Below are positions 4,369-63,653 of a stretch of 64,000 nucleotides of DNA, piece by piece. Location of the stretch: positions 421,154 through 485,153 of the forward strand of contig MQVO02000024.1 of the NCBI GenBank assembly GCA_001986395.2, given 5' to 3'. The notes beneath the pieces are model-generated. The model did no database searches, was not told the DNA's origin, and saw only the letters and a list, made by a program, of their open reading frames with translations. Every line of letters begins with the position of its first letter. The first letter of the stretch is position 1. A program made the translations under genes and the position numbers. The stretch is from Irpex lacteus. Lineage: Eukaryota; Basidiomycota; Agaricomycetes; Polyporales; Irpicaceae.

Positions 4369-4399
4369 CGTTGTGAGACTGGTGGGTAGCACGAAGGAA

Positions 4400-37050: not shown

Positions 37051-37081
37051 CGGCCGATATTGTGCTGGAGCTTTATCGGCG
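37051..37081. repeat. CGCCGATA-family hairpin
   Basis: CGGCCGATAT ... CTTTATCGGCG. A weaker relative lies near 37795-37825 (GTCCGATAT ... ATATCGGC). Confidence 0.6.
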
Positions 37082-40530: not shown

Positions 40531-40709
40531 GGCATTGCATCAGTCTGCCAAACTCCCTGCCTGCCCCATAACGTAGCCTTGCCAGATACCTTATTGATGA
40601 TGTATCGCACTGTTAACGTAAATGGCTGGGGTGATGCTTCAAACCTGGCACCACAGCTCGCTCAGAGAGCGAATTCATCACGCTGTCATTGCAGCTTTAT
40701 TCTCATGCG

Positions 40710-40740
40710 TTACCGATAGCTGACTATCTACTTATCGGCG
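40710..40740. repeat. CGCCGATA-family hairpin
   Basis: TTACCGATAG ... CTTATCGGCG, just distal to palindrome 2. Confidence 0.55.
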
Positions 40741-41036
40741 GACCCCTCCATCGTGTCAAAGGTGCATAAGCTGTACCCACCACTTTCAAATGAATACCGC
40801 CTTTCCCAGTGGTGCATCGCTGGATGGTACTGCTTTGTCGGAAGCAGTGTCTTTCACGACCACGTGACATAAGCAATCCAACACATATCCATCGCGGCAA
40901 CAAGTTTTCGGTAATGCCTACACGTAAATGACGCGTAACTATGAGACTACCGAACTCGAAGACGATGTTTCTTAATACTGTGAACGATGTGCGCTGCATG
41001 CACGTTACTTCTGCCTCTCTACCTCCATCTACGACA

Positions 41037-41438
41037 ATGTCAGAGTCTCCGCCGCCACCGTTTCTGCTTTTCGTTATGATTGATGAGCTCTGTTGGGAGC
41101 TCGTGAAGTACCTCCGGGTGCCTGATTTGTTTCGCCTTCGCTGCCTCACGCATTTCATGAAACTACTCGTCGACGCCGTGCTTCCACGCAGATTCTCAAT
41201 CAATCGTAGTCTCAGGGATTATTTCAATCATCCGGACGCCTTCCGCTTGCTGCAAGCACGAACCGGGGCAGTAATCTCTGGGTCCTTCGCACGCAACTTC
41301 TTCACGGTGGATTTCAGAACACGCCCTGCTCTCGACCTGTACGTGTCCTACGAAGCTGCTCCCGCAGTTGGGACCTGGTTGGAGGTTAACGGGTACCAGT
41401 TCAGCCCGTTCGGAGCTCGACTTCATTCTATTCTATAA
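41037..41438 (+). pseudogene. 5' part of a gene truncated by DR2
   Basis: The ATG at 41037 opens a protein beginning MSESPPPPFLLFVMIDELCW; an in-frame ATG also exists at 40941. It has an F-box-like first segment (ELVKYLRVPDLFRLRCLTHF), then INRSLRDYF, DAFRLLQARTGAVISGSFA and LDLYVSYEAA. The series LQARTGA-ISGS-A then LDLYV is familiar to me from uncharacterised mushroom proteins; its GS ... DLD/DLY spacing recalls nucleotidyltransferase folds, but that is inference. The frame ends with four codons taken from the start of the 1.78 kb repeat (boundary at 41431), so the rest of the gene is missing. The surviving frame has no lesions, which suggests a recent truncation. Confidence 0.7.
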
Positions 41439-43213
41439 AGAAAGAAGCAAGGGGTTGGGTTCCCAGGGCGGTTATGGCAGGGTTCCGGGTCAACTTTTCT
41501 CAGAAAGTGTCTCATCGCCGATAGTTTCACGCTTTCGGGACAAAACGATACCCCAAGCGATGTCACGAAAGTCGACAAGAAAGCCATCAGCCCACAGGAT
41601 AGATCTATTGGGCACAACATTATCCGATAATTTCTCGACACGTATCGGCGATTGGTAAAGTCGGGCGCTTGGTAAAGAGCAAAACGCCGATAGATGACAG
41701 TGCAGCTATGGGCGAAATGAACGTCTGTGATCGAGCAACAGGGACAGTGTGAACAAAGCGATTCTTATTAACGTGATGTGTGATTAAATGCAATATTGGT
41801 GGCTTGAGATGACTAGTCTCAATGAATGAAAATAACTAATTTAAAATGTACTTAACAATCCCTTTTGGTATTGGCCTTGAAGGCCGTTCGAACAGGTGCG
41901 GTAGTCGTTTAGATCGACTGACACAACTAATTGAACAGCTTTCAAAGCCAATGACCAAAGGGGAAACATTAGGACAAGTTGCAATCGCCGGAATCGAACT
42001 CGCGATTTCAAGTCACAAGGTCATGCAGACGTGCCACTACACCGCGGAGGTGACATGTAGAGAGTGATTGATTGGGTGCCAATCTTACTTACTGAAGTAT
42101 CGGCACTGCGCGGTGCTATAGGAGATAGCTTCCACATTGGAAAGGGGCACGCATTCACTGCATGTACGCCTGAACACACATGCAGCAGCCTTTCGAATTG
42201 GATTGGATGTGTGAGTGGATGGTTGACTTACGCTTATTGAGAGGGTCATTTGTCCGCAACCAAAGGCTTGAGTCGAGCGATGACAATTTCAATGTCGCCT
42301 CTGTGGTGTGGTGGTTAAAATCAAGAGACATGCTCATGATGAGGATGTCGCTGGTTCGACTCCTGACGTGGGCAAGTGACTACTGAAGTCCGATGTGCCA
42401 CATCCATCAGTCATGGGTAATGACCGATGGATGTAGCACATAAGACAGCAGTCCATTGTTTTGCCGTTTCATCAAGCCAGGAATAAGATCGTCGGTCTGA
42501 GAGGTAGATCACATTTGAAATTTGTGGGTCTAAACCTCTACAAGGTTGTGTCGTCGATAGCTTCATTAAGGATATCGGGAAGAAGTCAACATTGCGCTAG
42601 TCCTTTACAGGACGGAAATACAACATACAAATTTCAGGTCACGCGGTTCCATGTGTGTGCATGAACGACAGAAACGAAGAAAAAGTGTTCAGGCCTGTGC
42701 AAACCGCCGATAAGTTTGCTGAAACTACCGGCGAAACGTCTGAAAGCAGGAGGGCTGTCCTATCACCGCCCAGTGGGTGTATATCGTGATTGCCGATAGT
42801 TACACCGAAAATATCGGCGTTGACGGTGCATGGTAAGAAGCGGCCGACGAGTAAGACATATCGAGTTGTTTATCCCTTGATCGACCCCACAAGATGTTAG
42901 CAAGTATTTTCGACTCTTGTCGGAACAATCGTCAAATCAACAGCTGATTGGATCAACTTTATTTGTTGCGTCTGGAAGATCTACTCGATGTGTATGCCTT
43001 TCGTGTCTGATATCATCCAGTCCACGACTGGCAGACTGCTGGATAAACGCCTCTGTTTGTACGGTGATCTAGAATGGTGGGAAAGTGAGCACGTGACCAT
43101 CTTCTTCGAATCGTATCTATATTGCACTGAGTCGGGAAGTGACTTGCTTTACTTCATCGATGAAGCCCCGCAACCTCTCATAAGGCCAATGTAAGCGGTG
43201 CCCGTCATGAATG
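41431..43213 (+). repeat. DR2: 1.78 kb direct repeat, second copy
   Basis: Same sequence as DR1 with scattered substitutions, including both tRNA-like modules (41987-42052 minus, 42297-42373 plus) and the hairpins (for example 41685-41714). Its left border cuts a gene. Its right border (GTCATGAATG at 43213) supplies the first ATG of the next gene. Nothing at the two borders looks like a clean target-site duplication. Confidence 0.9.
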
Positions 43214-44088
43214 GAGTAATCTCATGTATCTTTTGTACTACGATTAGGGATCAGACAAAGGCAAAGCATGAAATGTCGTCGAAGTCTTCGAAGATAGATA
43301 ACATGGCGCAGATCAGAGATCAGTATGAGTTCAAGGATTACATTCCGCGCAGGGAAGCCCGAGGTGTCATTAAATGGGAAAAGGTGACAACGAACCAGTC
43401 AAGTGCAGCGGCAATAGAGCATAGGAAGCGTGAGCGATCATTGAAGGCTGGACAGTCCGAGGCTGGCGCACAGTTACAGACCATCACATCCACCTCCCGT
43501 CACACGACTGTCGCGGGGAAAGGAAAGGCCCAAGACGTCGGCAGGGACTCGGATGTTGCTGTGCGTGTGACGGCTTCTTCGCTAACGAGCAAATTCGTGA
43601 CTTGCAATAACGCTCAGGACTTGTCCATGTACAAGGTCGAGGATATCCAAAGCCGAGGAGAGTCACTTCGCGAACAATGGAAGTTTTGGGCAACTGAGTA
43701 CGCCCACAGAACACCACAATACGAAGCCCTGCCGGAGGTGGAGCGACAGCTGACGAGCGAGGTGATGGCAGATATCCTGGATGGGTGGGGATTAGGTACC
43801 GAGTTCATTGCATGTGAGTCGCATTCATTTCGGGAGCCATGTCATTGTCGTCTTACGGTAAATACAGCGGAGGTGAAGGAGACTAGTGAGATTGCAGGGC
43901 TTCCGATTGATTTAAGCGATGTGTCGGAGGCAGAGGCGTTGCGCGTCCGGGCAGCTGTCTTTCGGGCGTTGCTCGATCGGGCAAACTCGCGCATTCTCGA
44001 TCTCACCATTGTCGCGAGAGCGTACGAGCGGGAAGTTGAATTGGTGGAACGTAGGGCATTCATGATGCTTCCGAGGGATGCGAAGTGA
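43207..44088 (+). CDS. Unknown protein, helix-rich (275 aa)
   Basis: Exons 43207-43813 and 43868-44088, with a 54-nt intron (GTGAGT...ACAG), give 275 aa and a TGA. The first in-frame ATG (43207) lies within the end of DR2. A second one (MSSKSSKIDNMAQIRDQ, about 24 codons in) may be the original start, the repeat having replaced the native leader. The first half is charged and low in hydrophobics (ARGVIKWEKVTT). The second half is helical, with a leucine- and alanine-rich stretch (EALRVRAAVFRALLDRANS) and a Glu/Arg-rich end. No family was recognised. It is the first of five genes on the plus strand leading to the telomere. Confidence 0.6.
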   Translation: MNGVISCIFCTTIRDQTKAKHEMSSKSSKIDNMAQIRDQYEFKDYIPRREARGVIKWEKVTTNQSSAAAIEHRKRERSLKAGQSEAGAQLQTITSTSRHTTVAGKGKAQDVGRDSDVAVRVTASSLTSKFVTCNNAQDLSMYKVEDIQSRGESLREQWKFWATEYAHRTPQYEALPEVERQLTSEVMADILDGWGLGTEFIACESHSFREPCHCRLTVNTAEVKETSEIAGLPIDLSDVSEAEALRVRAAVFRALLDRANSRILDLTIVARAYEREVELVERRAFMMLPRDAK

Positions 44089-44172
44089 TATGCATGTTTG
44101 TAAATCGTCGTTGACACACACATGATCAAACAAAGTGTAAACAATGCATGTACCCTGATAGTGAGGTCAGAA

Positions 44173-44321
44173 CGCCGATACATACACGTACGGCTATCGG
44201 CGAAATGAACGACATGCTATTTAGGTTGACCAAAACTCTGCCCTCCTCGTTTGGGTCACTAATTGCACATGACCTATGGAGTCCTCAATTTGCCGATACA
44301 AGTACGCACATCCATCGGCAA
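44173..44321. repeat. Pair of CGCCGATA hairpins between two genes
   Basis: 44173-44202 (CGCCGATAC ... GCTATCGGCG) and 44290-44321 (TTGCCGATAC ... CCATCGGCAA), about 117 bp apart, in the spacer between the 275-aa gene and the cysteine-cluster gene. Confidence 0.8.
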
Positions 44322-44617
44322 CAGATGTTTTTGTTGTGGATTGAAGTCTTGGACTTCTCAGACAAGATGACCTCGTTCTTATTGGACATGCGTTCATACA
44401 TTTCCACGACGATTTCTCTCACGTGATCGTGGAACCTGACCAATATTCCACATGGCAATGTGGCGTTCGATGAAGTCGCCGTCTCCGTCTGAGTCTTTCC
44501 TCGCCTCCATCCTCGTTCTCCTTCTCTTACTCGTCTTGCCTCTTCATTTCCCCATATCGCATATGCAGGTCAGTAGGTGCATGCCTCTAGGTTGCAAGAC
44601 TGATCGAAATCCACAGA

Positions 44618-46055
44618 ATGATTGCATCGAACGCGCAAAACTCTGTCGAGAGGAGCCCGTCCACCAAATCGAACGCTGAACGCTCAGGCCCAGTGAGTCC
44701 TCTTCTCAACTGCATTTCTCTCTCTCACATCGTTTGACTTGTGTTTGAAGTCTACGCCGACTGAAAAGGTTGAGAATTCAGTTCTCGCTGGTGAGCGGCA
44801 CTTGTCTTGCAACTGAAACGACCAAAGCATCGTCGGTTTGACCTTCCCGTCTAGATTCTGCTAGCCAGCACGACGTTGGTTCACAGACGTCTGAGACGGG
44901 GTCTGCCGACAGCGAAGGAAGCTCAAGCGACGATCCGGAATCTCGAGCCGACGATGAAGACAGTGGAAGCGAATACATCGACAAGGCTCCCAAAGCCGTA
45001 ACTCGTGGGAAGCGAGCTCTTCGGGGTCGCAATGCTTCTTCTCAAGACATGGAGGAATCTTCGGATGAAGAAAAGGACGAGGAGGAGAAAGACGAACTGG
45101 AGGAAGACGAGCTTGAGAGCAACGACTCACCCACCCCTGTGGGTAAGAATGGCAAGAAATCCGCGAAGATGCACCAGCCTAAAGGCGACTATGGCACGCC
45201 ATGGAAGGTCGGACGAATGGCTGTGGTGTTGCGAGACGATCAGAGGGTGAGCACAGTTCCACAATGTAAAAGGTCCGCAGCAGCTCAAGTTGTGTATGAA
45301 GTGTGCCGCATGCATCGCGCTTCAACGCCCGACATGTGTTGTTCCGCTGCGCGCTCCCGCCAATCTTGTGATTCAGCGATGCGTACTGTGCAACCATGAG
45401 CACGACTACTGCACTGTGTACGACGAGCGATCACCTAAAGAACGGTATCGGACTGAGGCCGTCGTCGACCTATTCGCTGCGATTCAAGGCTTCCCGGAGT
45501 ACCCGCAAGTCGAGCCACCTCCTCCCGCGCCTGCCAAACGGGACCACACCCCTGCAGATCCAGACGAAGGCGTCGACCCCTCGTCGCCAACGAAGCAAAG
45601 ACGAATGATCAGGCAGCGACGAGCGAAGAAGAATAAACTCAGGGGTGGTAAGTGAATTCAGCTTCAGCCTCACCTGACACGAATCCATCTCACAGTGTTG
45701 TTGACGAAGCTGCTGCCACGTCGTCGACAACCTCAGCCCTACCTTCGCGAACCCCCGGACATGGCGATAACGTCGCGGGGCCGAGCAGGCTGAGCGCCGC
45801 GTCAGGTAAGTTCATCCTTATTCGTGACTGTTCGAAAACGTCTCACGCCCTTGTCGTACTGTAGTCGGAGTGCCTGCGGGGACTGGCAATGTCGTCGCTG
45901 GGCGCTCTGCCAACGACATTGCACGCGCGACTCTCACCACACTTCGTGATCAATACCGCTACCTCCGTGCGAAGGAGTTAGATGCTGGCGAGCAGGCGGA
46001 CAGGATCATGGATCAAATCCGAGAGTTTGAAGCAGTGATGCGCAGCCTCGACTAG
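44618..46055 (+). CDS. Acidic protein with a cysteine cluster and C-terminal coiled coil (379 aa)
   Basis: Six exons (44618-44692, 44751-44790, 44855-45246, 45302-45647, 45710-45805, 45865-46055) stay in frame for 379 codons. The order is a Ser-rich start, a strongly acidic region (SSDEEKDEEEKDELEEDE near residues 105-122), the basic strip GKNGKKSAKM, then a cysteine cluster near residues 170-210 (CAACIALQRPTC ... CVLCNHEHDYC, that is C-x2-C-x7-C and C-x2-C-x6-C). A Pro-rich linker with a basic patch (RRMIRQRRAKKNKLR) and a C-terminal helix with heptad character (LTTLRDQYRYLRAKELDAG) follow. The cluster probably binds zinc, and the layout (acidic tail, zinc cluster, basic patch, coiled coil) suggests a nuclear DNA- or chromatin-associated dimer. 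The exact acceptor before CAAC is ambiguous (several in-frame AGs). Confidence 0.65.
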
Positions 46056-46150
46056 ATCATCACATGTATCATTAGCTACGATCCCGATTTTCGCGTGCTA
46101 TGACAAATGTTTAGTTATCCCGACCAATGACGTCCCTTTCAGTCGTGGAT

Positions 46151-46179
46151 CGCCGATACCTTCATTGAAGGTATCGGCG
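46151..46179. repeat. Perfect CGCCGATA hairpin, 13-bp arms
   Basis: CGCCGATACCTTC and GAAGGTATCGGCG surround a 3-nt loop: the longest uninterrupted stem of the family in this window. Confidence 0.85.
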
Positions 46180-46245
46180 GAGGAACATCATATGATGATA
46201 GTTATTGGCCATCATTTGAGACACTCGTTTTCTGCGGAGAGCAAA

Positions 46246-46375
46246 ACGCCGATGGCTGTCGTGCATTCTATCAGCAAACACGCCATTTCCTCAACACTGT
46301 ATAACGCGATCTTGAGCAATGGTTTACAGGAATGAGGCAAAACGCCGATGGCCGTCGTGCATGCTATCAGCAAAC
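46246..46375. repeat. Short direct duplication around a half-decayed hairpin
   Basis: A 36-nt block containing CGCCGATGGC and CTATCAGCAAAC occurs at 46246-46282 and again at 46336-46375. In both copies the right arm is changed (TATCAGC in place of TATCGGC). Confidence 0.75.
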
Positions 46376-47463
46376 AGACTGCGTTTGATGTACTCTTGTC
46401 GACACCATAAGCGCCGGCCCCGCCGTCGGCAACGCATGATTTTCTCATTCCAGCGCCTATTTGATTCCGGCCTCGTGTCTATGTGTCTGCCAACCCTTCC
46501 ATTATTCCGTGCTCATGTGGTTTTTCCTTTCCAGACGATTTAGCTTTTCAATGTGCCTGGCTGCACCTGTTCTATCAACCAATCAAAGGCAAAAGTTACA
46601 CATTAAGTCTTCCAATAGGAGCACACTTGCCAAGCGACACTGTTCGTAACTTCCAGCTGACCTTCAGTCTTTCGTGCTCAGCAGAGTCGTCCGTCTACCT
46701 CCCTTCGTCTGGTTCTATATTTCTCTTTCACCTCCTCCAGTAGATTTACAATGATAGCTTTCCTGCCGCAGATGCACATTGTCATATGTCCCTGAAACAT
46801 TTGCCTGGCCAACTTTTAACACTCTCAAGGAAAACAGAGCAAGCTTGTTGTCCGGGTTGTTTCATCCACACCCTCTCCTCTGTATCTACACCGGTGAGCT
46901 GTCCTAACCATGGGGGTGCAGTTTTTTCCATGTACAACCTACTGTTTTGAATCGGGCTGTACAGCATAGTAGGTGCCTGTTGTAAATGCACTTTGCTCAA
47001 AACAACCGTCGTGACGCCTGCTTTTGTCACGTTAGCTGCTTGATCCCATTTCCGTGATGTTATTTACTCTTAGCTGCGCTCTTACGCCTTCAAAAAATCT
47101 CTGCTGACGCTGGTTGTTTCGGTCTAAATCGCACAGCTTGTAGTCGTAAGTGCTTACAACTGCCCCTCTTATTGAGAAGTTCCTTATTTCACCACTTCAA
47201 ACTGACTACTTGCTTTCCTGCTCACTTGTTCTCGTTTTCACCGATACACTTTGCCGTATCTCAGAGATGTAGCGACAGTTAAAGTCCACTGAAGACTGCC
47301 CATATTGTCTGGTGCAAACGTAGGTGATAGTAGCCTTTGGCCACTCTGAGTGTCACTGCACTTGTCAGCCCAGTATTTCTGTAACAAAGCGCAAATGTAG
47401 TTTGTAAGTGCAAAGTAGTACAGTATAACGTAACATAGTTAAGCATAATTGTACAGCTTCCTA

Positions 47464-47736
47464 GGCCCCGTTCGATGACACCGCTATGGTCCAGTCACGC
47501 TACGTCATCGCACCTAATGAGGCTGAAACTCAGTGTCATTCTGGTATACTCTGTTACAGCGTTATTAGATTCTTCCTCTAATTTCCTACGCAAGTCACGT
47601 CTCGTCATGTCTCCTTATACTCTATCTGCTTTCATGGGCTTCTCGTTGTGACATAACGTGACCTGAGCTGACTAACTATAACGTAGCGGAAGATAACATA
47701 ACGTAGCGGGATATAGCGGTGTTGTCGAACAGGGCC
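47464..47736. mobile_element. MITE with ~26-bp terminal inverted repeats
   Basis: The left end GGCCCCGTTCGATGACACC and the right end, reversed, GGCCCTGTTCGACAACACC match over about 26 bp including CGCTAT. The element is 273 bp with no coding capacity. The flanking triplets are CTA and TTA, compatible with a mutated TWA duplication of the PIF/Harbinger type. The GGSCCTGTTCG start also recalls that superfamily. The interior has AACGTAGCGG-type short repeats. Confidence 0.75.
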
Positions 47737-48680
47737 TTAGTTACGTGGGAAATCTATTTTCGACTGGACTGGTCAGAGTTGCCAGGGCTTCTCTTTGTCT
47801 TCAACACCGGAAATCATGCATAGGATTCAGGTCTACCGCGCAGGTTCAAAGCAAGTTTTGACTCTCCCTCAAGTGTGCGGGGTGCATCCGCAAACATGCA
47901 AAGTCATCTAATTTTTGCACAAATAGCTGGCTCCAGGTTCTTACTATAGTGTGCCTTGATCATAGACCACTGCTACATATTAGCTGAAATTCGAACATGA
48001 GTGTATACATGGGCGTATAGTTTTGGATTCAGCTAGGTATTGGTGTGCACATCAACTGATGAAAATGTGTCATGCTAACGTTCATTTGATGAGCCCATAA
48101 CAGCGGTTATGAGCTCGCTGCGACAGGCAAAGCTGATGGTCAGTGAAGTTTGTGCATTATGCTTCCTTTCGCATACCAAAGTAATGATGGTGACTCGATC
48201 CACAGGATCCACCAGAGTCGAACACGCATCTTGAGGTAAAATAAAAAAGGGCGTGTGAGAGGGTCTGGAGTAAGTAGGCAGTAGGTGCCGTTATTCAAGA
48301 AACTGGATTGTGCCTCCGTTCTAGATCAAAGCTCCAGCATCTATTTTTGATAAGTAGAGTCAATGGAAAGTGTATTTGGGTCGCTAGTGAACAGGGGGCA
48401 ATGAAATGGGAAGGAAATGAAACAAAAGCTGTTGCATGATAGTTTGACAATGAGGGAGACATGGGTGGAGAAGGGGAGACAACTTCTGGTTGAGATCAGT
48501 AAAGCGGACGTGCAAGGGAAGTCGAAGGAACAGGGATGTTCGGTTGCGGGAATGTGACAGAGAATAAATGGAAGAGATGCGAGAGAATAAGCGCCCATGA
48601 CATATCATTAGGTAACAATTGGTGTGTGATCAGGGACATGCGCCGCCCGCGTCTCTAGTTCTTGAACTCGAACCACCATC

Positions 48681-49453
48681 ATGCCAGGTAGCACGGAAGG
48701 TGCATTGCAGGATAACTTCGCGGAAGAGGACGGGTACAGCAGTGATGGAAGTGGTGAGCAGTGGTGACGAGTCTTTTCGACGTTGTGCTGACTTACAAAA
48801 CAGATGCCACAATTAGAGCTAGTGCGCTGGCAAATGTACAACACTGGCGAGAGGAACCTGGCAAGGCCACAGATGATGCCAGGAATGCAAGCCCTGTGCG
48901 AGCAGCGCCTCGCAATGCTCCACGTCGCGACCTGAGCTGTGTTGTCCGCGATACAGTGGATCGTTCAGCAGCGTATAACGAGGCCTGCTTTCGTATGCAG
49001 GTGGAAGGAGACGATGAAAACGGGAGCGAGACGTCGATTTACACGGAGGAGGAGATTGCTGAGGTATTCCTTGTTGATGTGGATGTGCCGGCGGAGGAAT
49101 GGGACAATTTGGTGAAGGTTTTAGGACGCATGCAGCCCAGACGATTGCGGCTTGGGTGTTGCAGTGAGCATGGGGGCCATGACCTGCTTCCGCTTGGATG
49201 GATGAGAATGCAGGAACGAGCAATAGTGGCATGCTATGCCTCGCTGGACACGGAAGCCGTGGTTGTGGGAGTGTATGGATACGTGGAGGGCGAGGGTGAG
49301 TTGCACTCGATGCGTGCAATTGCAGGGGGAGCGACGAAGGGTGCACACATCGAGGAGATGATACGCAAATGGTGCCTGGCTAGGTCATTCACGTTTAGAG
49401 ACGAGCTTCGGCGACAGCGCCTTCCTACGTTCAAAGTTGAGTATTATGATTGA
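48681..49453 (+). CDS. Unknown protein (240 aa)
   Basis: Exons 48681-48753 and 48804-49453, with a 50-nt intron (GTGAGC...ACAG), give 240 aa ending in TGA. The N terminus is acidic (NFAEEDGYSSDGS). The middle is mixed, including SETSIYTEEEIAEVFLVDVD. The C-terminal half is a compact-looking alpha/beta region: LGCCSEHGGHDLLPLGWM, then VACYASLDTEAVVVGVYGYV and AHIEEMIRKWCLARSF. The CC ... H pattern (CCSEHGGH) might hold a metal or be structural; this is not established. No family is recognised. It lies about 460 bp upstream of the 1686-aa gene on the same strand, with three hairpins of the CGCCGATA family in the gap. Confidence 0.65.
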
Positions 49454-49540
49454 GCGTAATGTTTGTCGAACAACGGACAATGATCTGTGTGAGAGCGATT
49501 TCAATACTGCCGGACATATTTGATTGCAGACCGGGGAGAT

Positions 49541-49757
49541 CGCCGATGGTGGGGAGACGTATATCGGCAAAATGTTCTGAATCGACGTGTGAGCCTCACA
49601 ATCGAGTGGCAGGTTGCTGCAGCCATGGAAGGCGACCGGTGGGCTGCAGAACTGCCGATAGGTGACGTGTCAGTATCGGCTATCGGACGATAATTTAAAA
49701 TGAACGCAAAGGGACAAGGGAGTGAGAACGCCGATACCGGTAACACATCTATCGGCG
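49541..49757. repeat. Three CGCCGATA hairpins upstream of the ParB-like gene
   Basis: 49541-49568 (CGCCGATGG ... TATATCGGC), 49653-49680 (TGCCGATAG ... AGTATCGGC) and 49729-49757 (CGCCGATAC ... CTATCGGCG). All lie between the stop of the 240-aa gene and the ATG at 49918, so they may be in the promoter of the large gene. Confidence 0.85.
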
Positions 49758-49917
49758 AAAAGAACACATCATGGCGTGATATCAGTTGTGACGTGATGTA
49801 CACGTGGCGCGTGACATAACGCGTGACTGTTTCATCGATGGAAAGAGTTCACCGCCGTTCTTCAGTTCTGACAACCATCTTTCGAACGCACCCTCACCTG
49901 CATATACAAACTCGACA

Positions 49918-52900: not shown

Positions 52901-55900
52901 CACCATATTGTCTGGAGGGCGCGCGAGGGTCCTCTTACAAGGACGCGTCGGAGATGATGTTCGAGTCCTTGAGGCACCCGGATGCGAAGATCGACGAGAG
53001 CAAGATCGACGCCGCACAGGACGCTCTTTTCACCGAGATATGGCAGAACCAGTCGACATATTTCTTGACGCTCGGTCGCAATATCTCAGCTGGTGGCAGC
53101 TATTGTCCCGTCACGCGCTGGGTTAACCGACGCAGTCTTCAAAGCGCTTTTCTCGGTGATGTCATCGACTCTTACGCCCTGGCTCTCGTCAACGATAACG
53201 GTGCCGTCTCTCGAACATCCGCTCTCCTCGACACAGCGGAAGCCGAAGGGACCAAAGGAAAGCAGGCCGCAGGGAAGGAGAAGAAGATGTCCCCGAAAGC
53301 GAAGGAGGAGGCACTGGCGGCCCTGCCACCCATTGTTTTTGGAGATCGGGCGTACCGCTGGAACGAAGGACTGGAGCTCGGGTTGCAATACGAGAAATAC
53401 GCGAAGGAGCAGGCGAAGCGCGGCGGCTCGAAAAAAAAGCAGCAGAATACGGCGAAATCGCTTACGCAGTCGGCAGATACGACCAAGAAGCTCTTCAAGC
53501 CTCAGCGTACGATAACCCCGATCAACCTTGCAGCTTACGCCGAGGTGCTCGACATCTTGCCCAAGCCCCTAACAGCCATTCACGCTGATGAGCTGAATGT
53601 CAGTCGTCAGTTCGAGGCACTGCTAAAGACAGCGAGGAAATACGGGCAAAACGTACTCACGACGGACGACCCTTCACCTTACTTGCGCGTGCTTATTCGC
53701 ACCCCGATGCGATGGGGTAGTCTTACAGGGCACGGCTTCAAGGACATCCTTAACTACTGGATCCCGTCTGCGCTCATGGAAGTTCACGTCGTCAACAACT
53801 ATCGCGTCGGCCTCATCGAGGACGACGAAGGCGGTTACTTGCGACAAAGGCTCGAAAAAGTTCTGCAAGCTTTCCTCGTCGCCGACTCCAAAGACTTCAA
53901 TTGGCCAGACGGCTTGCGAAACGTCAAGGATCTGAAAGGTGTCATCGATCCCCAGTCAACGTTGGCGAAAATGGAGAGCATCGTCGCGAGATACCGTCAG
54001 CGCGGCAATGACGACCTGAAACGGGTCTTGAACACTCTATCGTCGTCAATTTCGACGACTCTCCCGCCTTCGTTTACCTCACTGCCGACGAGTGTTGCTG
54101 AGCACTCAATTACGACGCCTGAGATGCAAACAGCAATCCGCGCGGTGCATGCGGTATGTCAGCATAATCTACCCTAACAGCACCAACTGACCAGGTTTAC
54201 ATCAGGCGGCGACGACCATTATCGATCAAACCATCTTCTTGTTCCAGCGTGAAACTTTGAAGGAGGCTCTCGCTGACACAGCAGATGAGCGGATGCGGGC
54301 AGACGCGGCGCTAATTTTGGAGAAATATCCACATCTGAGCTCGCCGATCTATCAAATCCGCCCCGTCGACTTCGATGACAATCTCCTGCGTCGTCGCGTC
54401 ATGGATCCATGTCCGGTAATAGGTCTCCTCGGTTTCGCGACCCTTGGCGAAAAATACCGCAAGTTCCGCGCTGCCGAAACGCAGAGGGTGAAGGCGGAGG
54501 CGTCGTCGTCGACCGGTTCGTCATCGAAGGCATTGCAAGACGCAACAGGTGCGTGTTTCATTAAATATTGATCCATGGAACTTCGACGAGATGAGCTTAG
54601 GCACGACTCGAACTCCTACACCGCGTCCCATCGCTACTCGCCGAGACACCGTCGTGGCGAGGCCTGTGAGACTTGCCGACGTTGGCGCGGATGTTGCGAT
54701 GGACAAGGGGAAAGGGAAGGGCAAAGCTGTCGCTGGTCGCTCGGCAACGGCATTGTCCAACGTGGCCGAAGTACCTCAGGTCGAACCGACGATAAACGTC
54801 CCGCAAATCGAAGACCACCCGAGGCGACCTCGCAAACGCAGTCACTCTCAGTCGGAGTCTACGTCGTCGGCAGCAGACGGTGATCAGGAGACAGATGACG
54901 ACGCTGCCAGCTCTACCAAGCGTCGGCGCAACACACTTACTCCTCGCGACGTTTCGGGTGTTAGAGGCACAGGTGTCGGCCAACTCACCTCAGCTACTCC
55001 GCGAGAGGCGGGTGTCCCTGGGAGCGCTGCAAGCACCATCGTCGATCAGTCATCGCTTGCTGCCCAGTCGTCGCCTGACATCGCTTCACTGGCGATAAGT
55101 GGCACTCCGGAGCAGTCTGAAATGGTTGCAATCCAGCAAGCATTGGAGGCGAGTCGCGAGGCTGCAAGATTGGAAGCATCTCGTCAGGTCGCATTGATGG
55201 CGCCCGGTGCTGGAAGCAGCTCGACCGCTGCTAATGTGGAGGATCAGCACTCGACTCCTTTGATTGACGAGACCCGGTCCAAGGACGTTGTGATGCGCTC
55301 CCCGGCTGCATCGCCTGAACCAAGTGATCGAACTGGGGCACCTGTCGTCGCCAATGAAGAGCCAGGTAGTCGTCGTGATGATGCGTCGCCCCACTCTCCC
55401 GCTCACAGCACTACATCGGATATGCAGTTGTCGTCGCCGCTGAGTGGACCAGGTGAGTGCTTCTCATATGAAAGCGCAGAGTATACTCTCGTTCGCCGAT
55501 AGATGTCGCGACAGCCGTCGGCGTTTTGGACATTTTCGCAGGTCCATCCGTCGATCCGAAAGGCATCAGACATGTCTCACCGCCGATAGTTGTCGCGCAT
55601 TTACCGGCGATCCTGCTCTTCAACGTATGCACATACTAACTTCTATTTTCATCCGCTCGCACCTCATTCCTGGTCCATGCTGCGATCGCCACTCAACGTA
55701 CGTAAACTACCCTAACCCTGGAACGCAACAATAATGCTGATGGTTGTCTTCATGAATTGATTGATTAATCCCAGTATCCTTCTCACCGTCAAAGACGATG
55801 AGACCATTGATCAGTCGCCAAGAAGATCTTTGCGTCCGAGCACGCTCGCTTCTCAGACCCGACCACCACGCTCAGGCCAACCTCGTAAGTCGTCGCTCCT

Positions 55901-56100
55901 CTCAAGTAAATGCGAAGCAATCATATTTATAAATTTATTTCAACGCCATCCTCAATGCAGGTCGTGGACGAGCTGGGGGAAACAATGCACCTGGTCGCCG
56001 CGAATCCTCGGCTGACCACGAGCCATCGCCGAGGCCTCCCCAGTCGCGGAGTACGGGCAAACGGCGTCAGCTCACGCCGCGCCCGCACGAGCGACCCTAG
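49918..56100 (+). CDS. Large protein with a ParB/sulfiredoxin-like motif (1686 aa)
   Basis: Twelve exons (49918-49980, 50026-50040, 50093-50218, 50278-50475, 50538-51231, 51284-51954, 52012-52602, 52876-54153, 54206-54548, 54601-55452, 55795-55884, 55961-56100) keep one frame to the TAG. Residues 1-135 are acidic, then Lys-rich. Residues about 185-285 read RLRFGLVNNRPLVRTQ, then AIPIVV, then LGGQHRVAA. A basic/hydrophobic lead, a PI-V strand and a G-x-H-R helix start are the hallmarks of the ParB/Srx fold, whose members bind or hydrolyse nucleotides and, in bacteria, bind palindromic DNA. Two coiled-coil stretches follow (about 405-515). Residues 590-1320 are globular and unassigned. The last 350 residues are Ser/Pro-rich with nuclear-localisation-like patches (RRPRKRSHS, STKRRRN). 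Introns 7 and 10 are long and contain hairpins. Function unknown; the ParB assignment is a motif-level inference. Confidence 0.75.
52624..52855. repeat. Three CGCCGATA hairpins inside intron 7 of the ParB-like gene
   Basis: 52624-52657 (TTCGCCGATGG ... CCATCGGCGAA, perfect arms), 52735-52764 (TTGCCGATAT ... ATATCGGC) and 52821-52855 (TTTCGCCGA ... TCGGCGAAA). They make up much of a 273-nt intron in a gene whose hairpin-free introns are 45-76 nt. Confidence 0.9.
55494..55608. repeat. Two CGCCGATA hairpins inside intron 10
   Basis: 55494-55523 (CGCCGATAG ... CCGTCGGCG) and 55581-55608 (CGCCGATAG ... TTACCGGCG), 87 bp apart, within a 342-nt intron. Confidence 0.85.
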
Positions 56101-56772
56101 GTCGCGTATCTCGTCGGTGTCCAGACAATAACCCGAACGTCGCCATCGTCGTCTCTGCAGTGCCTAGTGTATCCTCCTTCCCAACCGGCTGCGCTCTTTC
56201 ATCCGCTTTCCCCTCGACGCCTATCCATTCGCTATCGCCACGATCTCCCGCCTCATTTGTATTTGTATCACTCCCTTCCCGCCATCCATTCCGCATATCC
56301 TCCTCTGCCCCCTCACTCTCCATAGCTGTATAACTTTTGTACTATGTTTATCCATTACGTTCTCATGCTTACACACGTTCAATGCGATGAGTCCCCCTCG
56401 GATCACAAACACTTTTGACCGACACCAAATGCAAATTGAACAAATTTCAGTGAGCCTTATTTGAAACTGCAAATGTTCTTCCGAAAAACCTAAATTTATT
56501 TGCCCGATCAAGGGACAGGGGACGCCGCCGTCGCTATGTCTTATCTTCGTGTTTAGCATGTTTCAGGTGGTCGGACCACTCCGGATACCTCACGAGCACC
56601 CCGCCAAGGTCCGACGACATAGTTCTCGATTTGTTAAATCTGGGGAGGGATCTGTAGCCCGAGATATAAGTGCCAAACGGGCTAACCCAACCATCGTCTG
56701 ATTTGCACCCTGCTCTTCCTACGTGTACATCCTGAACTACGCCCCGAACTGAATAATAGCTTCCAAGCAAAA
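56101..56772. other. Intergenic between the two large genes
   Basis: About 670 bp without a supported gene or hairpin. Minus-strand frames up to 112 codons exist but have no recognisable content. Confidence 0.4.
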
Positions 56773-59700
56773 ATGGACATGGATTCGTATCGTCATCGGC
56801 TTGCTGCCGTTAGGTAACGTGCAGTCCTACCAGGAAGCTAGAGCAAATCTCATTGTTGTTATGTCCTTACTTATTCGCAGTGCGTTTCTGGACCGCCGAG
56901 CTGAGGTCGAGCCTGAGGAGGACGAAGACGTGGTGGATATTGACGAGTCCAACGCAGTCGACCTGGCGGATGTTGCCGCACCCCTTCAGTCCGAAGCCCC
57001 GCTGAAGCAGGGTGAAGTCAGCATCGGTGTGTCCCAAGCAACTTTGGACCGTGATTTCGCCTTGGAGACGATGCGCAAAATACCCACTCACCGGATCACC
57101 CTGGCACGACTCGAGCGACTTTACGAAGCTCGCCGGCCAGGACGCCTGGCGCAATCTGAGGCCATTCGCATCATGCAAAAGCCGCAAAAAGTGACCATCG
57201 ATCAAGAGTACCTCCGTCGTCCTTCCGACCCAGATCTCTCGTACTTCTCGATTACCTCTCACATCGACGCGTTAATGATCGTCCCCAGCAACATCGGACT
57301 CGCAGCAATCCTACCCGCCCGCCGACCTAATCAAAGCTTCAGTCTCCAGCTTTCTCTCACACGCCTCTCGCGTCCTTTCACCGCCAAAGATGGATATTTT
57401 GGCTTCGACCCTCACAAGGCGCTTATGTGGGTCGGACGATATGCATGCGACGCAGTGTGGGTGGCACTCGCAGATAATGTGCCGGAGGACGCGCCGCCCG
57501 ATACCCAGCCATATCGAGGCCGCGTGAAAGAGGCGATTGTCGACCGCCCCGTCGCCCACATGATTCTGATGTTTTTCGCATATTCCCTCTCCGTTGCCGC
57601 CGTCGCCGACATCCATATTTCCGGTGTTCGCTACCCACGGAACGTTGAAACGATCGACTGTGTAAAGAACAACACTAATTTACTGTGAGTCCTTCTCGCG
57701 TCCATTATCACCTGTCCGCCGATAGTCGTCGCTACGTCTATCAGCGTTTGTCCACTCCTCGTATTTGTCTGCCTCACTCAACTTCGCCGATATTTATCGA
57801 ACTTCTATCGGCTTTTTGTCCAAGACCATTCGCTAACCCCTCTCAAGTGCGATTAACAGAAACGGAATCAATCTCGACCTCAACTTTGATCAGGCTACTG
57901 CTTGGGACCACGCAATCCGGGCCACTTGGGTTGACTGGCTTGAAAATGCGCCGCCCGAGTATCAAGACGCGATTGGGTCCCGAGTCCCGATCTTCCTGAC
58001 CGTATCTTACGGGCAAGATTGGTCCTTTTTCCCCGGCCGCCCCGAAGAAGCAGATCCAATCGATTGGTGCAGCAATCGCGACCTTCGTCAAATCCGTTTC
58101 ATCTCTTTTGCAGTTGCGAGTGACATACAGTAAGTGTCACGCAATTGATTCATGTCACCTGTCCCTCATTGTCGCAAACCTCATTCGAACAGGGCTCGCG
58201 AGTATCACAACTTCGTCGACCTTCCGCCTGACCAAATCCGCGAGGATTATCCAGATACGGAGTTCTTTGATCATTGGGACCCGACGGTTCGAAATCCAGT
58301 CAATATCCACACCTATCCCGTCTTGACTGACGATGATCCCCCTGTCGAGAACCAAGTATTCACTGGCGACGGCGTGCGCGTACGGCGTCGGGAGGGCACG
58401 CCTTTGAGTTGGGGAGAGGACTGTGGGATGATGCTCAACCTTCGTACACTTCCTGTCCTTTTCGATCGGGCCGTCGCCGTTCCCACGGCCGCGAATGGAC
58501 AGGGACCGGAAGAGTACTCCGCACCTCGCGGCCTGGACTTGTATCCGCAGGCGTTTCTTGGCGACGTCGGTCATTATCAGTCTCAGGAGCTTCCTACCGT
58601 TTTCCGCGATGTTCTTCACCGCGTTAACTCGCGTGTTGGTGACCCGGAGATCGTCGACAGCCCGGAACTCGGTCCAGTCATCGGGGGGAGCTGTCAAGGA
58701 TATAACTCGGCCTTCCATCGCATTCGATACAATGTCAGCTCACACGATGTTCAGCTGGCGGAACAGACTGCCGACGCCGCAAGAATTTTCGCTCACAGTA
58801 CCTCAGAGAAAGCGAAAGCCTCCTCATTGTCCCAAAAGCTGCACGCTCATAAGCGGGCCTTTCATCGTTTGGAGCGTAAGCTTAGCTCGCCCAATGTGAA
58901 CACATCTTTGCGGCTGGAAAATGTGTATCATCTCGACCTCGGCGCAGTTGATGATGAGATGCGAAACGCAACGTCCGTATATTCCCATGACTGTCTCAGC
59001 ATCTATCCTCTGACACAAAGTGGCTTTTCTCAGGGACATCTTCCGCCATGTCATCTGTCCCCTCGCCTCTGCCTGGGTCTCGCAGCCGGTATTTTCGGTA
59101 TTGAGGGATCATCTGGTCATATTCCGTCCAAGGGTTAGCCGTCCACTCTTTCCTTCCACTCATGCCTGTAGCTAACGAACCACCAGGCTTATCCGTCCCT
59201 TTATCTCTGGACTTCGTATCCTCTCTCCTGCGCCTTGGAGGTTCTGTACGAGCAAACCAATCGCGCCTCGCAGCACATTATCCGCCAGTCTGAGGAAGAT
59301 GGTCGGCTGAATCTCAACGTCCTCCATCTACAACACTTTCATCAAATCGAACTCACTGCCATGCTCGAACGTACGGCCAACTTTGGACAGACGGGCAATG
59401 CTCGTGTGTTCAATGTAACACTCATGGATCAGCTCCTGCTATCCACTGTTGCGCGCCGGGGCACCCTCCCATACCTGGGCCCAATGATCCAGCTCAATGA
59501 ATGTGACGGGCCCTTGGCTTTTGTCGTCGACATCGATCGGTGGCCGCTGGATCCGTTTACTTCGGAACCCCTCTCCTCTGCTCTCGCCTCATTGGTTTTC
59601 CATTACGGCACACCGTTGGCGGCGGTGAGTACTCTTATCATATTGTTGACGATTCGCCGATGGGGACACGACGGCCATCGGCTTTGCGATCGAGCTGTAC

Positions 59701-61560
59701 CGTACCCGTTCTGTACGATTCGCCGATACTTGCTCGATTACCCATCGGCGTTTGTACCCCTGCACACGCCTGCGCAATCACTGACATCCTCTTCTCAGTT
59801 CTATCATGCGATGTTCAGCATGCTGCACATTTACAGGCACAGTGCTTCATGCCCTGGTTACCAGCCCTACCGGGCGAACAAACCATTCTTTCCCGTGATA
59901 GCAATGTTTCACGCTTGCTTCACCCACTATGTCCGGGAGACAACCGACTTCATCGAGGAGAGTGTCAAGCAAAGAACGATGTCAATCGTCCAGGCTAACA
60001 ACGGTCGCCAAACATCTTTCACGAAAAACTGTCTCAAGTATCTCAAGGACTGGGTCTCACTTCCCCGGCCGTTCGCCAATACACCCGAGAGCCTTGGCCC
60101 GCTCCTCCTCGCTCTTCGCACCAATGGCAACGTTCCGGATCGTCTCCCTGGCTCTGAAAACTTTCCTCCTCTCACCCTGAAAGAGTTCGCCAACGCGACA
60201 CTTCAGGTCGCTCGCTCCAGCCGCACCGCCTCACTTCATGCGCCCTTCCTCTCTAAGTCCCTCACTGTGGGCCTTCTCCGCGTCGCACTTATGCTCGCCG
60301 AAGTTCAGTTAGGTGATCTCGAGGCAGCTCTACGCGAAAAGCTCATGTGTCAGGCTATCAGCATTGTCGTCGAGCATCACAAGATCCACAACGTCCCTTG
60401 GGCCCCGGCACCCGTTCCCGGCGATCGTCGATCTCGATCTCGCACCTATCGCCCGTCTATAGCCTCATGGCGCGTACTTGACACCACTATCACTGACCAG
60501 GCATCCATCACGCGAAACCTCATCATGCAATCCAGTGACCCGCTCGCCATAACGCGTCTTAACATAGATGCTGCCAACAGCATCAGTGCCGCCGGGGAAT
60601 GGAGAATCGCTGCGGTCCCATTGGCTGACCTCCGCCGCTATTCGAACAAGACAGTTAACCCAGTCGACTTCGTTCTCAAGCACGCCTCGGTGGAGAGCCG
60701 CTCTTTTCTTGATCCAAATAGCCCCAAGCACTACATTTACAGACATTACATGTGGGTCACTCAGAATCTCAACGTCAAGAAGCCTCCCCACCGCCTCATT
60801 CTCTACTGCGCACGAATCTTCGCGGCCACCGCCCCCTACCTCGCCATCGAGCCAAACTTTGTCGCTCCTCCGAACACAGCAACAAATGAGGAGTTCGTTC
60901 GAGTGTTCCAGTCCATACCACTCATCACTCCCCCTCGCAAAGGTGTCACACAAGCGCTACCTTTAATCGTTTTATTCACTGGGATGGCCCTCGGATTACT
61001 TCATTCAGACTCTCCGCTTTCTCAAAGGCTGGGGGATCCGAACGGGCGCGGAAGTTTGGGCGCGGAATGGACAGAAAAACATGGTACGCCTCGCTCACGC
61101 ACAACATACATCGCCCTACCTGATCTCGTTTACTAACTTCGGACAACCCCCGCACGTAGGCGCAAAAGAGATTTTAGGGACTGCATTCGTTCGTCTCGGT
61201 CTCGCTTGGACGAAGAAGCTGTTGCGAAGCTCGGAGAAACCTGGGGACCTGTGGGGAATCTACGACTACGGCGCGTTGACGATCAAATGTGCCGACTTTG
61301 AAAGCATGCTGCACAAGAATCATGCTCACGGCGCGTATTACGCAATTCTCAATCTGTGTGGACCCGTCATCGCTCGCCGCCTCGTTGACAACGGTGCACT
61401 CGCCGAACCGACTCCTGCCCCCCACAATGCTCTGCAACCGGCCAGTTCACGGAAGCGGCATCGCAACGATAGCGACGACGAGGCAGATGGGTATATGCGC
61501 GCTCCTCCTGTAGGCTCCCGTCGATCCCGTCTCCTCGACGATGTTATTGTGCTCGATTAA
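56773..61560 (+). CDS. Large protein of no recognised family (1372 aa)
   Basis: Eight exons (56773-56813, 56881-57684, 57860-58129, 58193-58972, 59034-59133, 59187-59624, 59799-61083, 61160-61560) are in frame to the TAA. The start is the ATG at 56773 (MDMDSYRHRLAA), whose 41-nt exon ends with a clean AG|GT; a later ATG at 56861 lies inside that intron. After an acidic stretch (VEPEEDEDVVDIDE) the protein looks folded throughout: RITLARLERLYEARRPGR, GRYACDAVWVALAD, VSYGQDWSFFPGRP, AYPSLYLWTSYPLSCA, FYHAMFSMLHIYRH. The C terminus has a basic nuclear-localisation-like patch and acidic run (SRKRHRNDSDDEADG). No catalytic motif or transmembrane region is convincing. Introns 2 and 6 (175 and 174 nt) each hold two hairpins; the other five are 53-76 nt. 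It follows the ParB-like gene on the same strand and is the last gene before the telomere. Confidence 0.75.
57717..57812. repeat. Two CGCCGATA hairpins inside intron 2 of the 1372-aa gene
   Basis: 57717-57746 (CCGCCGATAG ... CTATCAGCG) and 57783-57812 (TTCGCCGATA ... CTATCGGC), 66 bp apart. Confidence 0.85.
59653..59750. repeat. Two CGCCGATA hairpins inside intron 6 of the 1372-aa gene
   Basis: 59653-59682 (TTCGCCGATGG ... CCATCGGC) and 59721-59750 (CGCCGATAC ... CCATCGGCG), 68 bp apart. Confidence 0.85.
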
Positions 61561-63414: not shown

Positions 63415-63445
63415 TAACCTAACCTAACCTCACCTAACCTAACCC
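63415..63445 (-). repeat. Interstitial telomere-like tract in reverse orientation
   Basis: Six CCTAA-type units (one CCTCA variant), the reverse complement of the terminal TTAGG array, lie about 430 bp inside the end. Confidence 0.85.
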
Positions 63446-63653
63446 ATATTTTACCCTTCCCCGATGTTGCACCGACTTATCCCAAAATGGTAAAAAACCA
63501 TGAAAAATTGAGGACGTCTTGCTGTGGCTTTGGAAGAGCAATGCCGTCTTGAGTTGTCTTGTGTAATTTCAACACCAAGAGGCTGACACAGAATTCTGCA
63601 GAGTATGTAGACCAACTGCCATACAGGTTAAGCGCAAGGTTGCCAACGTCTTG

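What the first reader, a model, noticed from the sequence alone, without database searches (positions are those of the whole stretch)
43207..61560. Candidate undescribed subtelomeric gene system: five co-oriented genes wired with hairpins
Five genes (275, 379, 240, 1686 and 1372 aa) run in the same direction toward the telomere. None has a housekeeping domain, at least three look nuclear (basic patches, a cysteine cluster, a ParB-like motif), and the hairpin family lies between and within them. This could be a large mobile or selfish element, or a chromosome-end maintenance module in which the ParB-like protein recognises the hairpins. No integrase, transposase or helicase was recognised, so mobility is not shown.
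Basis: inference. Interest (0 to 1): 0.8.

Follow-up and report, generated by a model that had tools for sequence, protein, structure and literature searches.

The report
Five-gene element added at chromosome ends
A fungal chromosome ends in a 22-kb unit of five unknown genes, one of a family of units that appear to have been joined again and again, by the same left end and, where it could be checked, at the letters AT, onto cut chromosome ends, each lineage carrying its own palindromic DNA signature.

Summary
The five genes form one unit (window 41430-63872) of a multi-copy family in this 44.3-Mb genome. On 12 of 12 contigs of at least 100 kb, every g1, g2, g4 or g5 match found points to the near contig end. 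The "hairpins" are palindromes of fixed spacing, with a different sequence in each of three lineages. They lie in spacers and long introns: 0 of 21 touch exons. All 30 strict sites in the genome lie on contigs with unit starts or unit genes.

Units begin with a constant motif, AT[G/T]CTATA...: 36 places, control 0; 31 lie within 32.1 kb of the contig end they point to. Upstream, the motif is joined to cut older sequence; in 15 of 15 distinct, well-matched joints the uncut version continues with AT. This looks like repeated one-ended addition of units at chromosome ends.

No gene reaches a curated family cut-off, and no reverse transcriptase, transposase or helicase was recognised in the units. 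ParB kinship failed its profile tests; a GGQHR motif remains. The joining mechanism and the palindromes' role are inferred.

The parts
41430..63872 (+). Complete A-type unit, from its constant left end to the telomere
   Evidence: Unit-start motif at 41430 with the uncut predecessor known from C170, C179, C180 and C185; telomere follows at 63873
41430..41447 (+). Unit start of A type, ATTCTATAAAGAAAGAAG; same start at window 32803, C14:115019 and C58:7735
43207..44088 (+). g1, 275 aa, 2 exons (43207-43814, 43869-44088)
   Evidence: 99% copy on C14, diverged copies elsewhere
44618..46055 (+). g2, about 369 aa, 6 exons; cysteine cluster and acidic stretch (seen by eye)
   Evidence: paralogues
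48681..49453 (+). g3, 240 aa, 2 exons; also in the C-type unit on C67 (48% identity); no match in B-type C113
49918..56100 (+). g4, about 1701 aa, 12 exons; long acidic N-terminus, conserved core
50949..50963 (+). codons of the invariant GGQHR motif in g4 (the 'ParB-like' motif)
   Evidence: alignment A3
56773..61560 (+). g5, 1372 aa, 8 exons
   Evidence: paralogues 47-51% identical over the 428-aa exon
42706..42818 (.). palindrome pair upstream of g1
44174..44319 (.). palindrome pair between g1 and g2
46152..46371 (.). palindrome triplet after g2
49542..49756 (.). palindrome triplet between g3 and g4
52627..52851 (.). palindrome triplet inside g4 intron 52603-52875; the matching gap of g4 holds palindromes in B and C units
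55495..55608 (.). palindrome pair inside g4 intron 55457-55774
57718..57812 (.). palindrome pair inside g5 intron 57685-57859; the matching gap holds palindromes in B and C
59656..59749 (.). palindrome pair inside g5 intron 59625-59798; matching gap in B holds two, in C only two-mismatch sites
61745..62113 (.). palindrome pair after g5
34583..41429 (+). Truncated leader of a B-type unit (start motif at 34583 and again at 35007), cut at 41430 before its g1; strict palindromes all with gap 14 (7 of 7)
   Evidence: start-to-g1 distance 5.06-5.14 kb on C170, C185, C180 from positions
32803..34582 (+). Truncated A-type leader, 97% identical to 41430-43213, cut at the ATG of g1
32537..32802 (+). Short unit with the B-type start; 143 bases of its body recur directly before the telomere of C67
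31969..32536 (+). Innermost unit start seen in the window; to its left no strict CCGATA palindrome in 31,968 bases
63873..64000 (+). Telomere repeat (TTAGG)n, end of contig C32

Best explanation
The region is the outermost member of a family of large, multi-gene, chromosome-end mobile units. Each unit has a defined left end, AT[G/T]CTATA[G/A]A.., and no defined right end: its right side runs out to the telomere or is cut. Shown: copies of at least three long-diverged lineages sit near contig ends, pointing outward; left ends are joined to older sequence cut at an AT; right sides are cut at different points, by the next unit or by telomere repeats. Inferred: an exposed or broken chromosome end (or a subtelomeric AT site) receives the left end of a unit in a one-ended reaction, the unit is copied outward to a telomere, and whatever lay beyond is replaced. 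The strict AT, with no clear surplus of longer matches (ATG in 5 of 16; chance would give about 4), fits enzymatic joining at an AT target better than loose annealing, but reverse transcription primed by the chromosome end is not excluded. Further inferred: the palindromes are lineage-specific binding sites for a protein encoded by the unit (g4 is the first candidate), used to mark the unit's own DNA for joining, expression or protection from silencing. Which gene does the joining is unknown; g4 and g5, the two largest, are the candidates.
For: Copies: 23 matching pieces for one g4 exon, 15 for one g5 exon in the own genome (pieces, not copies; lower bounds). On 12 of 12 contigs of at least 100 kb (C14, C20, C32, C51, C54, C66, C67, C75, C170, C185, C267, C307) every g1/g2/g4/g5 match points at the near contig end, at most 38 kb away (lengths). 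C67 repeats g1-g2-g3-g4-g5 then telomere. Start motif: 36 places, control 0; 31 within 32.1 kb of the end pointed to, 27 of them on contigs over 70 kb; of the other 5, three have unrelated downstream sequence and two are internal copies. Joints: of 33 starts examined, 19 have a candidate uncut predecessor in hand; 16 match it with at most 2 mismatches in 24 (15 distinct joints) and all 16 continue with AT; shifted positions give 0-3 of 15. Telomere repeats cut units at different points: in g2 on C307, in g5 on C117, just after g5 on C118. Palindromes: A gap 15 or 16 (12 and 9 of 23), B gap 14 (13 of 13), C gap 17 (12 of 12), at most one mismatch; spacing class switches at unit joints; 0 of 21 in exons that cover 60%; all 30 strict A-pattern sites on contigs with unit starts or genes. 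Selection: dN/dS 0.11-0.35 in the 4 of 6 between-lineage comparisons where it could be computed, dS 1.6-4.2.
Against: No polymerase, integrase, transposase or helicase domain in g1-g5. None of 146 reverse-transcriptase matches (150 of 177 candidates scored) lies on C67, C113, C118, C184, C179, C117, C149, C112, C68, C180, C131 or C317. A contig end is not always a chromosome end: telomere repeats were seen at the relevant end of C32, C67, C307 (for C67 and C307, for C32) and C33, C53, C58, but C14, C20, C51, C54 and C66 are absent from the ordered telomere list that reaches C67. The joint search required the unit to start with AT, so units with another start would be missed; 14 of 33 starts have no predecessor in hand; of three weak rows (3-4 mismatches) two show AT and one (C14:115019, repetitive) does not. 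Two true starts lie far from contig ends (C187, C308). No movement was observed; this is one assembly. Near-identical B-type copies could come from recombination; the g5 exon of C113 and C118 differs by 3 non-synonymous and 0 synonymous changes, which does not show constraint. Both structure models are low confidence. Exon avoidance is about 0.003 by circular shifts (16 of 5000) because sites are clustered.
Confidence: 0.66

Rival explanations
1. Passive subtelomeric duplication: the genes are ordinary lineage-specific subtelomeric genes spread from end to end by homologous recombination or break-induced replication, as Y' elements are (recalled), with no element-specific joining.
For: Uniform outward orientation is what exchange between ends gives anyway; B-type copies are nearly identical (g5 exon C113 vs C118: 3 changes in 431 codons); some contigs hold mosaics, e.g. 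C14 with A-type g1-g2 then another unit start and a different g1-like gene.
Against: Recombination does not explain one constant left end joined to 15 different predecessors, each exactly at AT, nor palindromes that differ by lineage yet recur in the same gene gaps.
Confidence: 0.17
2. Telomeric retroelement read in the unusual direction: an antisense RNA ending in ..CUAUAGCAU-3' is annealed by two bases to the chromosome's 3' end and reverse transcribed by an enzyme acting in trans (telomerase or an unlinked reverse transcriptase), so the genes end up pointing outward. This is a mechanistic alternative inside the same end-addition picture.
For: Constant proximal end and variable distal end are the pattern of telomere-attached retroelements, described for Terminons as attachment by the 3' end with most copies 5'-truncated by telomeric repeats (PMC6431247 passages). 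Reverse transcriptases exist elsewhere in the genome (146 matches).
Against: No reverse transcriptase found in any unit examined; matches longer than AT are not clearly enriched (5 of 16) as annealing would predict; in FoTeRs and MoTeR1 the 5' end faces the terminus, the opposite of here; no Rfam family at E<=1 in 30000-64000.
Confidence: 0.25
3. The palindromes are not protein sites but RNA hairpins (splicing, export or termination signals) or leftovers of small inserted elements.
For: Their arms are complementary and they lie in introns and spacers.
Against: Spacing is rigid within a lineage while the enclosed bases vary; random flipping of sites gives equal or larger asymmetry in 370 to 1942 of 2000 flips in the four sets tested, so no strand preference is seen; recurrence in the same gene gaps of three lineages argues against recent insertion.
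Confidence: 0.2

Closest known systems
Terminons (giant Penelope-like retroelements at bdelloid rotifer telomeres)
   Same: Multi-gene units up to 40 kb at chromosome ends, head-to-tail or interspersed arrays, copies truncated on the outer side by telomeric repeats (PMC6431247, passages read)
   Different: Terminons encode a reverse transcriptase and attach through reverse-complement telomeric repeats next to a hammerhead ribozyme; here no reverse transcriptase, no Rfam match and a non-telomeric left end joined at AT
Fungal telomeric retrotransposons MoTeR and FoTeR
   Same: End-dwellers of fungi with fixed orientation and many truncated copies (PMC12857005, passages read; PMC8381367, passages read)
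   Different: FoTeRs are 4.3-7.3 kb, encode a reverse transcriptase, carry telomeric repeats at their ends and have the 5' end to the terminus; here 22 kb, five genes, genes pointing outward, no telomere repeats in the joint flanks read
VANDAL transposons with VANC anti-silencing proteins (Arabidopsis)
   Same: Short motifs in introns, intergenic and terminal non-coding parts of the element, different between families, bound by the element's own protein (PMC5735166, passages read)
   Different: Here the motif is a spaced palindrome; no binding or demethylation tested; VANC was not used as a query; VANDALs are not end units (recalled)
ParB-like accessory proteins of giant algal transposons (e.g. 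Ectocarpus Sola1)
   Same: A large element carrying a protein with a ParB-like domain; the authors suggest such proteins bind and modify their own transposon (PMC12477816, one passage read)
   Different: ParB kinship of g4 rests on a GGQHR motif only; no methyltransferase domain recognised
Yeast Y' elements and fungal telomere-linked helicases (recalled)
   Same: Multi-copy subtelomeric gene blocks in one orientation
   Different: Those encode helicases; none recognised here

Membership tests
Telomere-attached retroelements (Terminon, MoTeR, FoTeR, HeT-A type) | Element-encoded reverse transcriptase | tested here: not met
   No Pfam family in g1-g5; none of 146 PF00078 matches on the twelve unit contigs named above (150 of 177 candidates scored)
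Telomere-attached retroelements (Terminon, MoTeR, FoTeR, HeT-A type) | Confined to chromosome ends with constant proximal and variable distal boundary | tested here: met
   31 of 36 start motifs within 32.1 kb of the contig end pointed at, two true copies internal; distal cuts vary
Telomere-attached retroelements (Terminon, MoTeR, FoTeR, HeT-A type) | Coding direction away from the terminus | tested here: not met
   On 12 of 12 contigs of at least 100 kb the matches point to the near end; contrast FoTeR
ParB/partition systems | ParB_N domain by profile | tested here: not met
   PF02195: 0 matches in own genome at E<=10, while the control rings in 11 of 14 genomes; no ParB family listed in Pfam or NCBIfam for the 3 members scanned; PHROGs gave one unnamed family, phrog_4773, for one member at E 0.0036, not followed; no tblastn match in plasmids or phages
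ParB/partition systems | ParB fold | tested here: inconclusive
   Model of the 231-aa exon has mean pLDDT 56, most of the core 30-45; no fold search was run on it
ParB/partition systems | Binding of a palindromic site | not testable with these tools
   Palindromes exist; binding needs an experiment
VANDAL/VANC-like anti-silencing | Family-specific motifs in non-coding parts of the element | tested here: met
VANDAL/VANC-like anti-silencing | VANC protein homologue | not tested
   VANC was not used as a query
Helitron-type rolling-circle elements | Joining at AT dinucleotide (the Helitron preference is recalled) | tested here: met
   15 of 15 distinct joints
Helitron-type rolling-circle elements | Rep/helicase protein | tested here: not met
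   No Pfam family in g1-g5
Y' / telomere-linked helicase elements | Helicase gene | tested here: not met
   No Pfam family in g1-g5

The most novel reading that the evidence does not exclude
A class of eukaryotic mobile element with its own, undescribed enzyme: a five-gene chromosome-end unit that propagates by one-ended joining of a defined left terminus to an AT dinucleotide and becomes the new chromosome end, and that recognises its own DNA by lineage-specific spaced palindromes kept in its introns and spacers. At least three lineages, with synonymous sites saturated or nearly so between them, coexist in one genome, each with its own palindrome code.
Probability: 0.4. Interest if true: 0.93.

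Novelty: new variant of a known kind. Interest (0 to 1): 0.83.

Why it matters
The end-attaching elements I could compare (Terminons, MoTeR, FoTeR) encode a reverse transcriptase, and FoTeR and MoTeR1 sit with the 5' end to the terminus. A family that caps ends with a defined non-telomeric terminus, faces outward and encodes no recognisable polymerase would be another route by which chromosome ends are captured by selfish DNA, in an organism that still ends its chromosomes with telomere repeats. The lineage-specific palindromes in matching gaps of the genes give a natural experiment on how a protein and its sites change together. Both parts can be tested with ordinary sequencing and binding assays.

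Tried and rejected
Homologue searches: g4 core, 0 of 7996 scored; g5 exon profile, 4 hits of 7996, one of them the window itself; ParB-exon profile, 4 hits of 7998, each 94-100% identical to a copy already in this genome. P0004 (38% to the window; 38-39% in the six best rows shown against pieces in hand) is the only distant relative. Profile searches in the PDB gave nothing better than E 0.05, to a designed protein. Viral contigs with the g5 profile: 111 stretches matched a pattern, none confirmed. Bacterial and archaeal genomes with the ParB-exon profile: 13 stretches, none confirmed. Structure models were too poor for a fold search, so none was run. Rfam: nothing in 30000-64000 at E<=1. One reverse transcriptase near a contig start (C187) reads as a Ty3/gypsy-like polyprotein by eye and was set aside. 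The idea that the 424-bp repeat at 34583 was a separate small element was dropped: it lies in the leader of the B-type unit. A wider ParB alignment was begun and given up because the relatives found were not expected to help. Papers: no description of such a fungal element was seen in these listings: 20 of 88 listed; 15 of 21; 1 of 1; 3 of 3; most subscription papers are not held. The button-mushroom paper on polymorphic chromosome ends (PMC7473861) was seen as abstract and outline only, the fungal TET/JBP transposon paper (PMC12730594) as passages. The species was not identified; 'basidiomycete-like' is my impression from gene structure and is not tested.


Full report
What was checked. The window is the last 64 kb of contig C32 (485,153 bases) of a 44,346,346-base genome in 317 contigs, and its right end is (TTAGG)n telomere. 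No gene reaches a Pfam cut-off.

The genes form a repeated block. One g4 exon has 23 matching pieces in the genome and one g5 exon 15; g2 has 38 and g1 28; g3 was not searched genome-wide (one search failed). These are pieces, several per copy, and lower bounds. On C67 the order g1-g2-g3-g4-g5 is repeated and is followed by telomere. C113 has g1-g2-g4-g5 and telomere, without a g3 match. On the 12 contigs of at least 100 kb with matches, every match lies within about 38 kb of a contig end and points at it. C131 (37.5 kb) is too short to judge. Telomere repeats were seen at that end for C32 and C67 and C307; for C14, C20, C51, C54 and C66 the ordered telomere list, which reaches C67, shows none, so those contigs probably stop short of the telomere. 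Three lineages can be told apart: A (window, part of C14), B (C113, C118, C184, C185 and others) and C (C67, C68 and others). Between lineages the proteins are 41-51% identical to the window over the g4 and g5 exons aligned. Of six between-lineage comparisons, dN/dS could be computed for four, 0.11-0.35 with dS 1.6-4.2; the other two are saturated. So the proteins have been kept by selection over a long time. Within lineages the numbers are too small to say: C67 against C68 gave 0.46 and 0.24 on 5 changes each, and C113 against C118 3 non-synonymous and 0 synonymous changes.

Where units begin. Comparing the window with other ends showed that 32803-34585 repeats 41430-43213 and that both start with ATTCTATAAAGAAAG, while 34583 and 35007 start with ATGCTATAGAAAAGAG. 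A pattern covering both finds 36 places in the genome and 0 for the reversed control. I read the flanks of 34 of the 36 (28 fetched in the window) and had the other two. Thirty-one lie within 32.1 kb of the contig end they point to; 27 of these are on 12 contigs over 70 kb and all point to the near end; 4 are on short contigs and uninformative. Telomere runs are listed at that end for C32, C33, C53 and C58. Of the remaining five, C229:286516, C32:212052 and C308:1705833 have unrelated sequence downstream and are taken as chance. C187:742452 and C308:1835427 have the true downstream sequence far from a contig end and are unexplained. The ATGCTATAG start is taken as the left end of the B-type unit: it lies 5.06-5.14 kb before g1 on C170, C185 and C180 (positions). 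The window therefore reads, from the inner side: a unit start at 31969, a short unit at 32537, an A leader cut at 34583, B leader starts at 34583 and 35007 cut at 41430, and the complete A unit to the telomere.

How units are joined. For 33 starts (the 36 less the three chance ones) I looked in the sequence in hand for the uncut version of what precedes the joint. Nineteen have a candidate; 14 do not. Sixteen match with at most 2 mismatches in 24 bases, representing 15 distinct joints. In all 16 the uncut version continues with AT, the same two letters with which the unit begins; in 5 it continues with ATG. Of the three weaker rows (3-4 mismatches) two show AT and one (C14:115019, repetitive) does not. 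At shifted positions AT occurs in 0-3 of 15; with AT at 6.1% of dinucleotides in the sequence in hand, 15 of 15 has probability 6.6e-19. The unit's own AT is there by construction of the search pattern; the predecessor's AT is not. The predecessors include A leaders, the middle of g5 of a C-type unit (C131), the end of a B leader and others, so the cut point in the old sequence is variable while the left end of the new unit is constant. Telomere repeats likewise follow units at different points: inside g2 on C307, inside g5 on C117, just past g5 on C118.

The palindromes. The 'hairpins' are two inverted 6-7-base arms at a fixed distance. With at most one mismatch, A has 12 sites at gap 15, 9 at gap 16 and 2 at 22-23 (these share an arm with, or overlap, a regular site); B has 13 of 13 at gap 14 (arms CCGATA/TATCGG); C has 12 of 12 at gap 17 (arms GCCGAC/GTCGGC). 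The bases between the arms vary. In the window none of the 21 A sites touches an exon although exons are 60% of the stretch; 16 of 5000 circular shifts do as well. Pairs or triplets sit upstream of g1, between g1 and g2, g2 and g3, g3 and g4, after g5, and in two long introns each of g4 and g5; there is none between g4 and g5. The gaps at g4 residue ~788 and g5 residue ~282 hold palindromes in A, B and C alike. Genome-wide, the strict A pattern occurs at 30 places against a control of 1, all on ten contigs that carry unit starts or unit genes. The B pattern occurs at 148 places against a control of 3; the 50 sites listed, the first in contig order, are on C14, C32, C54, C58, C68 and C112, all with unit starts or genes, and the rest were not shown. 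A strict C pattern occurs at 4 places on C67, C68 and C317. Within the window the spacing of strict CCGATA palindromes changes at the unit joints: gap 13 for 2 of 2 in 32803-34582, gap 14 for 7 of 7 in 34583-41429, and 13 (8), 14 (2) and 20 (1, sharing an arm) in the A unit; none in the first 31,968 bases. No strand preference was found.

What it is and how it may work. The evidence fits a family of large chromosome-end units that spread by adding their constant left end to cut or cuttable chromosome ends and then running out to a telomere. Joining at AT without clear surplus of longer matches points to an enzyme with an AT target more than to annealing; a two-base priming of reverse transcription on an antisense RNA remains possible. 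No enzyme could be named: there is no recognisable domain, and both structure models are poor (mean pLDDT 56 and 47). The palindromes look like lineage-specific sites for a protein of the unit. The nearest working parallel is the VANDAL/VANC system, where each protein acts through short motifs in introns, intergenic and terminal non-coding regions of its own element family (PMC5735166, passages read). g4 is the first candidate because its GGQHR motif is invariant and because ParB-like proteins are reported in giant algal transposons (PMC12477816, one passage read); but ParB kinship itself failed the profile tests made. One unnamed phage family, phrog_4773, matched one member at E 0.0036 and was not followed.

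Comparison. It resembles Terminons in size, gene richness, position and outer truncation (PMC6431247, passages read), and MoTeR/FoTeR in being a fungal end-dweller (PMC8381367 and PMC12857005, passages read). It differs in lacking a recognised reverse transcriptase, in joining without telomere repeats and, from FoTeR and MoTeR1, in the outward direction of its genes. I therefore call it a new variant of the broad kind 'telomere-attached mobile element' and leave open that it is a class of its own.

Limits. One genome only. Public proteins from a source labelled only 'lgn' match the A, B and C copies closely (P0005 99.6% to A, P0002 and P0006 100% to B, P0001 95-96% to C), so the same or a very near organism seems to have been sequenced elsewhere, and one more distant relative exists (P0004). 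Eukaryotic genomes could not be searched as such. No movement, expression or binding has been observed.

Noticed in passing
window 38152-40532: A 2.4-kb insert with 999-base inverted arms, 99.7% identical, sits inside the B-type leader; looks like a recent DNA transposon or foldback element.
   Followed up: no
window 7833-11284: A 3.45-kb stretch matches its own reverse complement at 96.5%, a giant palindrome in the inner part of the window.
   Followed up: no
window 33360-33760, 35430, 36285, 37585, 42000-42370: Repeated tRNA-like pieces with a B-box-like GGTTCGACTCC (seen by eye; the B box is recalled), suggesting a SINE-like component in the leaders; ARAGORN calls no tRNA.
   Followed up: no
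window 34583-36267: About four copies of a 424-base tandem repeat (70% matches) with palindromes, at the start of the B-type leader.
   Followed up: partly
window 63415-63444: Six (TAACC) repeats in the orientation opposite to the terminal telomere, about 430 bases inside it.
   Followed up: no
C187:742452 and C308:1835427: True B-type unit starts far from any contig end; could be old fusions, misassembly or internal insertion.
   Followed up: no
window 507-5500 and 12639-15958: Diverged inverted duplications (66-83%); a 338-aa predicted protein at 2472-3536 and part of the model at 15672-22679 look like F-box/leucine-rich-repeat proteins by eye.
   Followed up: no
C66, C267, C20, C75: g1-like genes without g2, g4 or g5 matches on the same contig; solo remnants or independent genes.
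   Followed up: no
g4 exon 50538-51231, family phrog_4773: One of three members of the ParB-exon alignment matches an unnamed phage protein family at E 0.0036.
   Followed up: no
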